DNA from: Gammaproteobacteria bacterium 13_2_20CM_66_19
GTDB taxonomy: Bacteria > Pseudomonadota > Gammaproteobacteria > Steroidobacterales > Steroidobacteraceae
DNA length: 35,804 nucleotides
Reading direction: 5' to 3'
NCBI GenBank assembly: GCA_001914695.1
Contig: MNCZ01000049.1
Span: 1-35,804, forward strand
A model generated the notes under the pieces. That model was given only the letters and a program-made list of their open reading frames with translations. It was not told the DNA's origin and did not search any database. This document shows, one piece after another, positions 9,037 through 11,943 of the stretch. Within the stretch, counting starts at the first letter, position 1, and every line of letters starts with the position of its first letter. A program made the position numbers and the translations under genes.

Positions 9037-9528
9037 CTAGGACGTTCCGCGCCCGCGCTGCCCCATTCGCTGAAACCGCCGCCGCTCGTTCCATTGATGG
9101 CGCGCGTGCAGCCGCTCGGACTGATTGCTCGGCTCGGGCGGCAGCGCCTGCAGCGCGCGCAACGCCGCGGCATGCGCCATGGCGACCGCCGGATCGGTCT
9201 GCAGCAGTGCGCGGTAGTGCTCGAGGAACGGCTGATCGGCCAGCCCGCCACCGCCGGCGAGGAGCTCCCGCGCGTGCGCGCCGATCGCGGCGCTCTCGCT
9301 TTCGGGGAGGTCGTCGGCGTAGGCCAGCGCGTGATCGACGTCGGCGATCAGCCGGTAGAGAGGCTGCAGCCAGGCCCACTCGGGGCTGGTGGTGATCTGG
9401 CGCAGCCGCTCGAGGGGCGAAGCTGGAGGCGCGAAATGGCGCTCTGCCTCGAGCAGCGCTCCGAGCACGCTCTGCAGGGCGGCACTGCTCTCACGAAGAC
9501 GGTCCAGCCATGGACGGTCCGACGACAT
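9037..9528 (-). CDS. uncharacterised 163-residue protein
   Basis: Not recognised. ATG at 9528 follows an AGGA six bases upstream; a longer in-frame form starting at 9588 would run through the palindrome at 9546-9565 and is less likely. The protein appears soluble and helical, with DRPWLDRLRESSAALQ, SPEWAWLQPLYRLIADVDHAL, and an Arg/Gln-rich tail HQWNERRRFQRMGQRGRG. There is no signal peptide. The strong GC3 bias and convergent placement two bases from the protease gene support a real gene. The repeat cluster lies immediately upstream, so its promoter must lie in or beyond the repeats. Confidence 0.65.
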   Translation of the reverse strand: MSSDRPWLDRLRESSAALQSVLGALLEAERHFAPPASPLERLRQITTSPEWAWLQPLYRLIADVDHALAYADDLPESESAAIGAHARELLAGGGGLADQPFLEHYRALLQTDPAVAMAHAAALRALQALPPEPSNQSERLHARHQWNERRRFQRMGQRGRGTS

Positions 9529-9565: not shown

Positions 9566-9571
9566 GCTAAA

Positions 9572-9649
9572 GCACCCCACGAAATCAAGCATTACCCGAA
9601 CGGCAGGTGACTACCGTCCATCAAGACGCTCGATTTCGTGGGGACCCCG
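9572..9649. repeat. 78-bp palindromic repeat unit, type A
   Basis: Begins GCACCCC and ends GGGGACCCCG. The outer arms CCCCACGAAATC (9575-9586) and GATTTCGTGGGG (9632-9643) are perfect 12-base complements. The core contains an inner stem, ACGG with CCGT, around CAGGTGACTA. Same length and same termini as units B1 and B2 but with different, compensating arm sequence. Core positions shared with B include GGTGA and GACGC. Confidence 0.75.
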
Positions 9650-9706
9650 GCTAGCCTAACCGCTGCCCCGCGGTAGCGCCAGGCACCTGATTTTCCGGGG
9701 ACCCCG
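9650..9706. repeat. left-truncated repeat unit (57 bp)
   Basis: Its right 20 bases, from CTGATTTTCC to ACCCCG, are identical to the right end of B1 and B2, but the matching left arm is missing: the sequence abuts the end of unit A directly. Its core differs from both A and B and holds a short inverted pair, CGCT with AGCG. Reads as a deleted or recombined family member. Confidence 0.6.
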
Positions 9707-9709
9707 CTC

Positions 9710-9787
9710 GCACCCCGGAAAATCAGACATCACGCGAGCTGCGGGTGAGCGCCGCCAGCCAGGACGCCTGATTTTCCGGGGACCCCG
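9710..9787. repeat. 78-bp palindromic repeat unit, type B copy 1
   Basis: Perfect 14-base outer arms CCCCGGAAAATCAG and CTGATTTTCCGGGG. The core folds into a second stem, GCTGCGG with CCG-C-CAGC around GTGAGCG. Followed by the trinucleotide CTC and then copy 2, giving an 81-bp direct-repeat period. Differs from copy 2 at one visible base (gccagcc versus gccaacc). Confidence 0.85.
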
Positions 9788-9790
9788 CTC

Positions 9791-9868
9791 GCACCCCGGA
9801 AAATCAGACATCACGCGAGCTGCGGGTGAGCGCCGCCAACCAGGACGCCTGATTTTCCGGGGACCCCG
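9791..9868. repeat. 78-bp palindromic repeat unit, type B copy 2, overlapping the HAD gene end
   Basis: Nearly identical to copy 1. The minus-strand HAD hydrolase reading frame enters this unit at 9868 and stops at 9804, so about 21 codons of that gene are repeat sequence. Beyond 9868 the sequence is normal HAD coding DNA. Confidence 0.85.
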
Positions 9869-10517
9869 CTTCGGCGAGCTCGCCGATCCTCCCGAGCGTA
9901 ACGTCCGCGGCCCGGTGCTGGTCGAGCTCGCGCGGATCGTGCGCATAGTGCCCCTGACGCACGAAGACCGTGGTGAGCCGCTCGCGCCAGGTGCGCTTCA
10001 TGGCGGCGAGGATGCGCAGCTTGTCGTCGATCATGACGTAGTGGTCCGCGGGAAAGCGCCGCTCGATCGCGTCGAGCATGAGCTCCTTGTGCAGGTAGAT
10101 CAGAACCCGGCCACCCACGGCATCCCAGAGGCCCGCTCGCTGGACCTTGCGCGGCTGAAACACCACGTCGCCGTCGGAGAGGATGATCGTGGTGCCGAGG
10201 CGCGCGCAGCGCTCGAGCGCGGCGAGCGCGCCCGGAAAGAGCCGCTCCCCGAATGGGTAGTCGATCAGGAAGAACGACACGCGCAGCAACAGCGGATCGT
10301 CGAGGTTCTCCAGGCGATAGCGTTGCAGGGCGCCGAGATAGTCGGCGTATCCGAGCTCGGCGCGCAGCTCCTCGAAGATCGCCCAGTAGCGGTCGCGGCT
10401 GGCGCCGCCGAACTCGCGCTGCAGATAGGCGCTGAGATCGGCCTGCACGGCGTCGTTGTCGAGGAGCGTGTTGTCCACGTCGAACAGGAACGCGATCTTC
10501 TTCGATGTCGCCGTCAT
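9804..10517 (-). CDS. HAD-superfamily hydrolase, C-terminus supplied by a repeat unit
   Basis: 237 residues. HAD motif I is FDVDNTLLDND (nucleophile and acid/base Asp), motif II is TIILSDGD, and motif IV is YVMIDDKLRIL. The region between motifs I and II is a helical cap. Likely a phosphatase of small phosphorylated metabolites; the substrate is unknown. The start is ATG at 10517; in-frame codons upstream to 10574 are possible but overlap the control region of the divergent FG-GAP gene. The last ~21 residues (from about GSPENQASW to RSSRDV) are encoded by repeat unit B2, so the ancestral stop was probably near LGRIGELAE. The core fold should be intact because all visible motifs lie upstream of the repeat. 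Confidence 0.87.
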   Translation of the reverse strand: MTATSKKIAFLFDVDNTLLDNDAVQADLSAYLQREFGGASRDRYWAIFEELRAELGYADYLGALQRYRLENLDDPLLLRVSFFLIDYPFGERLFPGALAALERCARLGTTIILSDGDVVFQPRKVQRAGLWDAVGGRVLIYLHKELMLDAIERRFPADHYVMIDDKLRILAAMKRTWRERLTTVFVRQGHYAHDPRELDQHRAADVTLGRIGELAEAGSPENQASWLAALTRSSRDV

Positions 10518-10674: not shown

Positions 10675-11943
10675 GTGAACAGCGAGTCTTTGTTGAGATC
10701 TCTCTACGGCCGAGCGGCGGTCCGGCCGCTGGCAGTCGGCGGCGTGACGGCATTGCTCGGTACGCTCCTGAGCTGCGGCTACGGCTCCGGCTATAGCATC
10801 CAGACCGTCAGCGTCCCGAACTCCATCGCGGTCGCGGATGTCAGCGGCGACGGCGTTCCGGACTTGCTGGTCGCCACGACCTCCTATCAGGGTAATCCCA
10901 CGAACCCGGGCTTCGCGAACGTCATTCTCGACAACAAGACAACCGCCGGCACGTTTCAGAAGGGGGTGCCGTACCCGACGACCGGAACCAACCCCTCGAG
11001 CATTGCGGTCGCGGACCTGACGCGCTCCGGATCGCTCGACCTTGTGATCGCGAACTACGCCTCCGGCAGCGTCTCGGTCTTCATGCACGGCTCCACCCCG
11101 GGCAGCTACATGCCCGCGGTCACCGTGACGACCGGCGGGCTTCCGAACCAGGTCGTGATCGCCGACGTGAATCTCGATGGACACCCGGACCTGGTCCTCG
11201 CCGACGCGAGCGCCAGCGGCAACGCCATCGTCCTGCTCCAGGATCCCGCCAACCCCGGGCAGTTCCTCGCGCCGGCCCTGCTCTCGACCGGCAGCACCAG
11301 CGCCCCATCGGTCGCCGTCGCCGACCTGAACGGCGACGGCAAGCCGGACGTCGTGGCCGCGACCTCGGATGCGAGCGGCAACAACGGCGCCGTTTACGTC
11401 TTCTACCAGAGCGCCACGAGTCCCGGGAGTTTTCTCGCGGCGAGGGTTTTTCCCGCCGGCGCGCAGCCGCAGGCGGTCAGGACCGCGGATGTGAACGGTG
11501 ACGGTCTTCCGGACATCGTGGTGGCGAACTTCGGTCCCGGTGCGGACGGCACCGGATCAGCGGGTGTCTCCGTGCTGCTGCAGGATGCGGCGAATCCCGG
11601 GAGCTTCCTCGCACCGGTGACCTACGCAAGCCAAGCCCGGGCCATTGACGTCGCGGTCGGCGACTTGAACGGCGATGGGAAGCCCGACCTCGTGGTCGCG
11701 AATCTCGGGCCCGCGCCGACCGGCAGCGTGTCGGTCCTGCTGCAGGATGCGGCGCAGCCGGGCGTGTTTCTCTCGGCCACGAGTTACGCCGGTTTTGGCC
11801 AGCCGCTCTCGGTCACTATTGCCGATTTGAACGGTGACGGACATCCCGACATCGCGGTGGCCGACAGCACCAGCGCGACGATCATGCTGCAGAACGCAAC
11901 CGCGCCGGGAACGTTTGCGGCCGCCACGCAAGTCGGAAATTAG
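10675..11943 (+). CDS. FG-GAP/VCBS repeat lipoprotein, probable seven-bladed propeller
   Basis: 422 residues. GTG at 10675 lies seven bases after GGAGGT, which decides the start over longer in-frame options. The N-terminal hydrophobic segment VTALLGTLLSCGYGSG has a lipobox ending in Cys, so it is predicted to be lipid-anchored. Seven calcium-loop repeats of the form ADxNGDGxPDxVVA follow: VADVSGDGVPDLLVA, VADLTRSGSLDLVIA, IADVNLDGHPDLVLA, VADLNGDGKPDVVAA, TADVNGDGLPDIVVA, VGDLNGDGKPDLVVA, IADLNGDGHPDIAVA. This fits an FG-GAP/integrin-alpha-like beta-propeller binding Ca2+ in each blade; the second blade has lost most Asp ligands. Function is probably surface adhesion or ligand binding. Convergent with the next gene, ten bases apart. 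Confidence 0.88.
   Translation: MNSESLLRSLYGRAAVRPLAVGGVTALLGTLLSCGYGSGYSIQTVSVPNSIAVADVSGDGVPDLLVATTSYQGNPTNPGFANVILDNKTTAGTFQKGVPYPTTGTNPSSIAVADLTRSGSLDLVIANYASGSVSVFMHGSTPGSYMPAVTVTTGGLPNQVVIADVNLDGHPDLVLADASASGNAIVLLQDPANPGQFLAPALLSTGSTSAPSVAVADLNGDGKPDVVAATSDASGNNGAVYVFYQSATSPGSFLAARVFPAGAQPQAVRTADVNGDGLPDIVVANFGPGADGTGSAGVSVLLQDAANPGSFLAPVTYASQARAIDVAVGDLNGDGKPDLVVANLGPAPTGSVSVLLQDAAQPGVFLSATSYAGFGQPLSVTIADLNGDGHPDIAVADSTSATIMLQNATAPGTFAAATQVGN

What the first reader, a model, noticed from the sequence alone, without database searches (positions are those of the whole stretch)
9572..9868. Equal-length palindromic repeat units whose arms covary
Units A (9572-9649) and B1/B2 (9710-9787, 9791-9868) are each exactly 78 bp, with the same termini (GCACCCC ... 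GGGGACCCCG) and shared core positions. The arms differ: CCCCACGAAATC pairs with GATTTCGTGGGG in A, and CCCCGGAAAATCAG pairs with CTGATTTTCCGGGG in B. Each change in the left arm is matched in the right. The inner stems also differ but pair (ACGG/CCGT versus GCGG/CCGC). Matched changes imply selection on a folded form, either single-stranded DNA (REP/MITE-type mobility) or RNA. I do not recognise the family. A fourth, left-truncated member sits at 9650-9706.
Basis: partly seen in the sequence, partly recalled or inferred. Interest (0 to 1): 0.75.

Follow-up and report, generated by a model that had tools for sequence, protein, structure and literature searches.

The report
Mobile hairpin repeats beside stop codons
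A 79-base hairpin repeat, seen so far in one genus of uncultured soil bacteria, appears to have spread around their genomes, often landing right at the ends of genes; it resembles the known REP/REPIN repeats, but the enzyme that would move it was not found.

Summary
A, B1 and B2 are copies of a dispersed 79-nt palindromic element reading on the window's minus strand. The own genome has 20 full copies; 18 of 58 same-genus genomes carry it, and 1 of 72 genera sampled in the order. Over 101 distinct copies the arms covary far beyond controls. Wobbles are strand-specific (G.T 86, A.C 8), so the CGGGG-first strand is the one that folds; it is antisense to the gene whose stop codon the element often abuts (35 of 91 copies). 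Element-free relatives at 10 of 16 own-genome sites show insertion beside YYA/TAG motifs, at 8 of 10 a gene's stop codon, with no target duplication detected. Best reading: a REP/REPIN-like non-autonomous element moved as single-stranded DNA. Against filing it as REP: no intact RAYT was found (genomes incomplete), GTAG is not conserved, units are long. Of the 'fourth member' only 9687-9707 is element; 9651-9686 is the ancestral end of a HAD hydrolase gene.

The parts
9572..9650 (-). element A, full copy (C at position 1, C at position 79, so without the outermost pair)
   Evidence: R1 92.6 bits; row of A3/A4; fold z -6.97
9567..9571 (-). TTTAG after A's 3' end; not seen at this place in the element-free loci of relatives
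9651..9654 (-). CTAG in front of A; TAG (9651-9653) is the ancestral stop codon of the HAD gene
   Evidence: G044 and G045 translations end GQRLG*
9655..9686 (-). ancestral 3' end of the HAD gene, not element sequence
   Evidence: aligned by eye with G044, G045, G009, no R1 match there
9687..9707 (-).
9710..9788 (-). element B1, full copy (G1/C79)
   Evidence: R1 83.4 bits
9791..9869 (-). element B2, full copy (G1/C79), tandem with B1 (81-bp period)
   Evidence: R1 84.0 bits
9804..10517 (-). HAD-like hydrolase gene whose present 3' end lies inside B2 (last 21 codons and stop are element sequence); start approximate
9037..9468 (-). next gene, no Pfam match at E 0.001; start approximate

Best explanation
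It is a non-autonomous, REP/REPIN-like mobile element of about 79-84 nt. Shown: the CGGGG-first strand carries a conserved hairpin with compensatory and strand-specific changes; copies are dispersed, some form tandems, and many sit next to stop codons in a preferred orientation; relatives have element-free versions of the same sites; no target duplication is detectable across copies. Inferred: a single-strand transposase (HUH/Y1 type, RAYT-like) recognises the hairpin, cuts beside its foot (positions 1 and 79), and joins the single strand next to a YYA/TAG target on opened DNA. In these GC-rich genomes such targets are often stop codons, so insertion can leave proteins almost intact. The transposase is unidentified and may have been lost.
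For: 20 full copies in the genome; 18 of 58 genus genomes; 1 of 72 genera in the order sample. Covariation. G.T 86 / A.C 8 in 91 copies; 51 / 3 in the 67 fixed-register copies, 18 / 2 without pair 5. Positions 1 and 79 covary (33 C/G, 18 G/C, 5 C/C, 4 G/G, 7 others; Fisher 1.6e-7 on the first four); this parallels the guide rule shown for TnpA-REP of Marinomonas (PMC8266576, passages: GTAG cuts at C|T or C|A; GTAC at G|A or G|T). Right-hand genes point at the element in 65 of 81 cases, 35 of 65 with the stop codon within -5..8 nt; 35 of 91 copies have such a stop 0-5 nt away, against 186 of 1514 eligible TTA/CTA/TCA sites and 700 of 65,097 non-coding positions. Empty sites at 10 of 16 own-genome sites, without a real R1 match. 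Nearest neighbour in the same genome for 46 of 91 copies, 18.9 expected.
Against: No intact RAYT or Y1 gene is linked to the element: PF01797 matches in 1 of 18 element genomes (a fragment) and 12 of 40 others; a RAYT query found one degenerate gene in an element genome (G005) with no copy in the 3.6 kb around it. The exact joint is unsettled: three sites (A, C9, C114) keep the motif in front as ancestral, three (C2, C10, C76) suggest the one behind is ancestral, four are ambiguous. Among 91 copies no dispersed pair exceeds 95% identity, so recent movement is not shown. 12 of 33 C1/G79 copies are followed by C, which the guide rule does not predict.
Confidence: 0.7

Rival explanations
1. It is a functional RNA: a 3'-end structure (terminator, mRNA stabiliser or antisense RNA) that spread because it is useful at gene ends.
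For: Position at gene 3' ends; sites occupied in two species (7 pairs compared); pyrimidines after the 3' end.
Against: Wobbles fit the strand antisense to the abutting gene, also between co-directional genes (23:2). No terminator-like or promoter-like site at the window locus; TTTT within 8 nt after the end in only 2 of 91 copies; no Rfam match. Orthologous sites hold copies no closer than unrelated ones in 5 of 7 pairs. In G021 a copy lies between the ATP synthase delta and alpha genes, a poor place for a terminator. No match in 40 of 58 same-genus genomes at E 1e-5.
Confidence: 0.13
2. It is a MITE of a DDE transposase or another double-strand mover.
For: Short, palindromic, non-coding, dispersed.
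Against: No left/right duplication signal: 76 of 192 matching bases against 73.9 +/- 4.7 shuffled, in the 48 of 91 copies that were in fixed register, non-tandem and had a YYA behind. Strand-specific structure is not needed by a double-strand mover.
Confidence: 0.06
3. It is mobile but moved by something other than a Y1 enzyme (another HUH nuclease, a recombinase, or RNA-mediated copying).
For: Y1 genes were rarely found where the element occurs; the folded strand could be RNA.
Against: No positive evidence for any such enzyme, and none was searched for. Several element genomes are only 63-84% complete, and the PF01797 genome search overlooked at least the G005 gene that Pfam recognises.
Confidence: 0.11

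Closest known systems
REPINs (REP doublets forming hairpins; PMC3116915, abstract and passages)
   Same: Two conserved ends, a less conserved spacer whose length matters, one long hairpin with compensatory changes, dispersed in extragenic space; similar size (71 bp between the invariant 16-mers of the GI type).
   Different: Ends are not a GTAG-tagged REP pair; a RAYT partner was not found; frequent contact with stop codons in one orientation.
GTAG and CGTC REPs (PMC3733652, abstract and passages)
   Same: Mostly behind genes; termini of GTAG REPs often supply a TAG stop codon; CGTC REPs also lack a known transposase.
   Different: Those are 20-40 bp with 5-13 bp (GTAG) or 8-9 bp (CGTC) stems; here 79 nt with a 16-bp outer stem; the tag here is only loosely N(T/C)A(G/C).
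TIR repeats of TIRYT genes (PMC3733652, section 16 read)
   Same: Long, partly self-complementary ends, some with a GGGGWSAS motif, next to RAYT-like genes; Y1 genes between such inverted repeats occur in other genera of this family.
   Different: GGGGWSAS occurs in 0 of 91 copies; the model gives only one chance-level hit (E 3.4) at the 24 Y1-gene loci fetched from the order sample.
Yeast mitochondrial GC clusters (PMC4478555, passages)
   Same: Mobile GC-rich hairpins with a constrained fold; one abundant class contains GGGGTCCCCG.
   Different: Mitochondrial, 32-42 nt, AG target; homology was not tested.

Membership tests
REP (GTAG super-family) | unpaired GTAG at one end | tested here: not met
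   Of 18 G1/C79 copies the tag is TAG in 11 and GTAG in 1; of 33 C1/G79 copies it is NAC in 19.
REP (GTAG super-family) | 20-40 bp, stem 5-13 bp | tested here: not met
   79 nt, 16-bp outer stem.
REPIN | inverted conserved ends plus spacer forming one hairpin with compensatory changes | tested here: met
REPIN | cognate RAYT in the genome | tested here: inconclusive
   None intact and linked in 58 genus genomes by two searches, but MAGs are incomplete and the first search missed a gene that the second found.
CGTC REP | terminal CGTC followed by an 8-9 bp stem | tested here: not met
   GCGTC/GCATC is internal and the inner stem pairs in only 61% of cells.
TIR repeat of a TIRtron | flanks a TIRYT gene | tested here: not met
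   No R1 match at 16 Y1 loci of the genus; one chance-level hit at 24 loci of the order.
TIR repeat of a TIRtron | GGGGWSAS motif (shared by some TIRs) | tested here: not met
   0 of 91 copies, either strand, 10 nt of flank included.
IS200/IS605-type mobility | strand-specific hairpin, insertion beside a short motif, no target duplication | tested here: inconclusive
   Hairpin strand and lack of duplication fit; the joint varies between sites.
IS200/IS605-type mobility | cleavage and joining by a Y1 transposase | not testable with these tools
   needs biochemistry
integron attC site | terminal RYYYAAC and GTTRRRY (recalled) | tested here: not met
   RYYYAAC near the 5' end in 1 of 91 copies, GTTRRRY near the 3' end in 0 of 91.
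known Rfam RNA | match to a family at gathering score | tested here: not met
   0 matches in the window.

The most novel reading that the evidence does not exclude
A stop-codon-directed hairpin element moved as single-stranded DNA by an enzyme outside the known RAYT/Y1 set, which carries its own YYA tail and so swaps or keeps the stop codon of the gene it joins; it could then spread even inside operons of essential genes with almost no cost.
Probability: 0.1. Interest if true: 0.72.

Novelty: new variant of a known kind. Interest (0 to 1): 0.48.

Why it matters
From the papers seen, how REP-like repeats insert, and why they crowd behind genes, is not settled. Here element-free relatives exist for ten sites, so target choice can be read directly: insertion beside YYA/TAG, at eight of the ten a stop codon. 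The covarying first and last bases and the strand-specific wobbles give natural support for single-strand recognition. If no RAYT exists in this genus, either another mover is at work or a stock of orphan repeats is decaying.

Tried and rejected
Simple chance inverted repeats: rejected. Target-site duplication: no signal. Autonomous copy: the 1053-bp gene between inverted element pairs in L135 is FabH-like, not a transposase; the gene between two direct copies in L179 is ATP synthase alpha. RAYT/Y1 partner: none linked. Virus carriage: 0 exact pattern hits. RNA family: none. Terminator/promoter scan of the window locus: none. Vertical inheritance as the whole story: in 5 of 7 shared sites the two copies are no closer than unrelated ones, in 2 they may be. 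In print: the searches showed no description of this element; the library holds open-licence papers only. Six of 16 own-genome sites (C90a, C32, C60, C90b, C126, C95) were not counted among the ten empty-site comparisons: C32 has one partial empty relative, C60 holds a collapsed copy in G044 and a full-length match in G045, C90b and C126 were too diverged, C90a aligned on one side only, and C95 has spanning hits that I did not fetch. Copies outside the fixed stem register (24 of 91) were dropped from the counts. Control mended: the background count masked some copies at wrong places, and the first redo also misplaced minus-strand copies and gave 19 of 91; both are replaced (35 of 91 against 186 of 1514; the motif and T-run counts are not affected).

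Full report
What is there. The window holds three full copies (A, B1, B2) and one 5' arm of a palindromic element. Its natural reading direction is the minus strand: (G/C)CGGGGTCCCC-NN-GAAAT-...-GC(G/A)TCTTG-spacer-GC...ATTTC-NN-GGGGTG(C/G), 79 nt. The minus strand of A folds at -45.7 kcal/mol (z -6.97), the plus strand at -30.9 (z -4.91).

Copies. A pattern search, an alignment of 20 copies (A3) and a covariance model R1 gave 20 full copies in the 3.1-Mb genome (82.6% complete); the other 7 of 27 hits are the reverse strand of the same places. At E 1e-5, 18 of 58 same-genus genomes (own included) carry it, up to 32 copies in G042. Of 40 genomes at E 1e-3 (own, same genus, 15 other families), 8 have it, all of this genus. 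In 396 genomes of the order, 11 have it, 1 of 72 genera (only 11 candidates were scored per genome there). An exact pattern in the one-genome-per-species collection found 23 stretches, all in MAGs titled Gammaproteobacteria bacterium; viral contigs gave none.

Fold. On A3 (19 distinct rows) 89.3% of cells pair, 57 cells changed on both sides against 22.5 shuffled. On A4 (101 distinct rows, aligned to the model and so leaning to it) 85.7% pair, 243 double changes against 113 shuffled and at most 73 slid; outer helices 97-99% paired, inner helix 61%. Relatedness is not corrected for.

Which strand. In the 16-bp stem of 91 copies (20 own, 71 from eight relatives) there are 86 G.T wobbles and 8 A.C. 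In the 67 copies with one register it is 51 to 3, and 18 to 2 without the fifth pair. By gene context in those 67: convergent 19:0 (25 copies), both neighbours antisense 23:2 (25), both sense 5:0 (8), divergent 0:1 (2), the rest 4:0 (7). So the CGGGG strand is the constrained one even where it is antisense to both neighbours. That speaks for single-stranded DNA, though an antisense RNA is not excluded.

Position. A simple codon-usage gene caller trained on the window was applied to the 91 copies. The gene on the element's 3' side points at it in 65 of 81 cases; in 35 of those 65 its stop codon lies within -5..8 nt. On the 5' side, 13 of 39 genes that point at the element end within that distance. 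Of 91 copies 35 have such a 3'-side stop 0-5 nt away, against 186 of 1514 eligible TTA/CTA/TCA sites (a matched 0-5 nt window gives the same count) and 700 of 65,097 non-coding positions in the same loci (binomial 2e-10 for the stricter control, copies not independent, which replaces). Those 35 stops are TAA 14, TGA 12, TAG 9; the called genes have TGA 149, TAG 54, TAA 37. Of the few neighbours that I identified, several are core genes: ATP synthase delta and alpha, DXP synthase and GARS. In G021 one copy lies between the ATP synthase delta and alpha genes and one behind alpha; G002 has a copy between homologues of those delta and alpha genes.

Empty sites. Close relatives G043, G044, G045 and G009 lack the element at many sites. 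Ten of 16 own-genome sites could be compared; R1 finds nothing above chance in those relatives' loci (the only real match there is at C60 in G045, a site not counted). At 8 of the 10 a gene's stop codon is at the joint; C82 and C114 are the exceptions. At A, C9 and C114 the motif in front of the element is ancestral and the one behind is extra; for A and C9 the motif in front is a gene's TAG stop. At C27, C48, C54 and C82 there is likewise one motif in the relative and two in G000, but which one is old cannot be told. At C2, C10 and C76 the motif behind is the ancestral one; in front there is CCA at C2 and none at the other two. In 48 copies the left and right ends do not match each other above shuffling (76 against 73.9 of 192). 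So no target duplication is detected, but the joint is not fixed to the base. At C60 relative G044 keeps a collapsed copy without its hairpin interior.

The window locus. In G044 and G045 the HAD gene ends ...GQRLG* with GGCTAG. A sits right behind that TAG. The B array entered further upstream in the gene; the HAD frame now runs 21 codons and a stop into B2. The sequence 9651-9686 is the old gene end, not element.

Mobility. Dispersed copies within a genome are up to 95% identical, and the nearest neighbour is in the same genome for 46 of 91 copies (18.9 expected; tandem pairs excluded by locus). At 7 sites occupied in two species, the two copies are no closer than unrelated copies in 5, and rank near the top in 2. 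Together this suggests repeated insertion at favoured sites more than plain inheritance.

The ends. Positions 1 and 79 covary in the 67 fixed-register copies. The 18 G...C copies are preceded by TA (11) or CA (4) in 15 cases and followed by T (10), A (4), C (2) or G (2); the 33 C...G copies are followed by T (19), C (12) or G (2). Copy A itself is C...C. In PMC8266576 (passages read) the fourth base of the GTAG guide sets the cut: GTAG gives C|T or C|A, GTAC gives G|A or G|T. The parallel is suggestive; the C behind G79 in 12 copies does not fit it, and a plain closing base pair would also covary.

The mover. PF01797 was found in 13 of 58 genus genomes, only one of the 18 with the element, and that one is a fragment that reads like IS200 (my reading). 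That search overlooked a gene in G005 that Pfam recognises, so absence is not proven. A RAYT-like protein (my reading) from a sister genus found G005, G010 and a marginal G061, 3 of 58; where the query has the second-to-last His of NHVH and the Tyr of RYVDQNPVRA, the G005 protein has Ala and His (catalytic roles recalled), and it carries a DnaA C-terminal domain. No copy lies in the loci of these genes. In other genera of the family Y1 genes are flanked by inverted repeats such as AAAAAGGGGACAGATCTATTTT; R1 gives one chance-level hit there. RAYT loss followed by decay of its REPs is described in PMC3686654 (passages).

Verdict. It works like a REPIN; membership is not established because the tag and size tests fail and the partner test stays open. 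A new variant of a known kind. On checking, the odds of the novel reading were lowered from 0.2 to 0.1, because it cannot exceed the odds of a non-Y1 mover (0.11).

Noticed in passing
L280:1501-2463 (G005) and L281 (G010): RAYT-like protein with a DnaA C-terminal domain (domain checked in L280 only); a His of the HUH-like motif and the Tyr are replaced in the G005 copy: possibly a domesticated or dead transposase. Inverted repeats around CAGTTACTGTC lie in both loci.
   Followed up: partly
L242:1634-1659 (G044), the site of own copies at G000:C60:13344-13506: The relative has a collapsed copy that kept only the outer arms: loss of a hairpin interior.
   Followed up: partly
window 9804-10517, minus strand: A HAD hydrolase gene has gained 21 C-terminal codons from the inserted repeat.
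   Followed up: yes
L058 and L128: Copies in two species sit beside the same tRNA-Ala(CGC) gene; this pair is among the few that may be inherited (ranks 2 and 6).
   Followed up: partly
L264:1097-1118 and 1956-1977; L266:1337-1389 and 2129-2181: Y1 genes of sister genera between long inverted repeats carrying GGGGACA.
   Followed up: partly
L042:1501-1740 (G000:C33): Fragment of a Y1 (IS200-like) transposase in the own genome.
   Followed up: no
window 10744-11943: Protein with FG-GAP repeats, strongly scoring.
   Followed up: no
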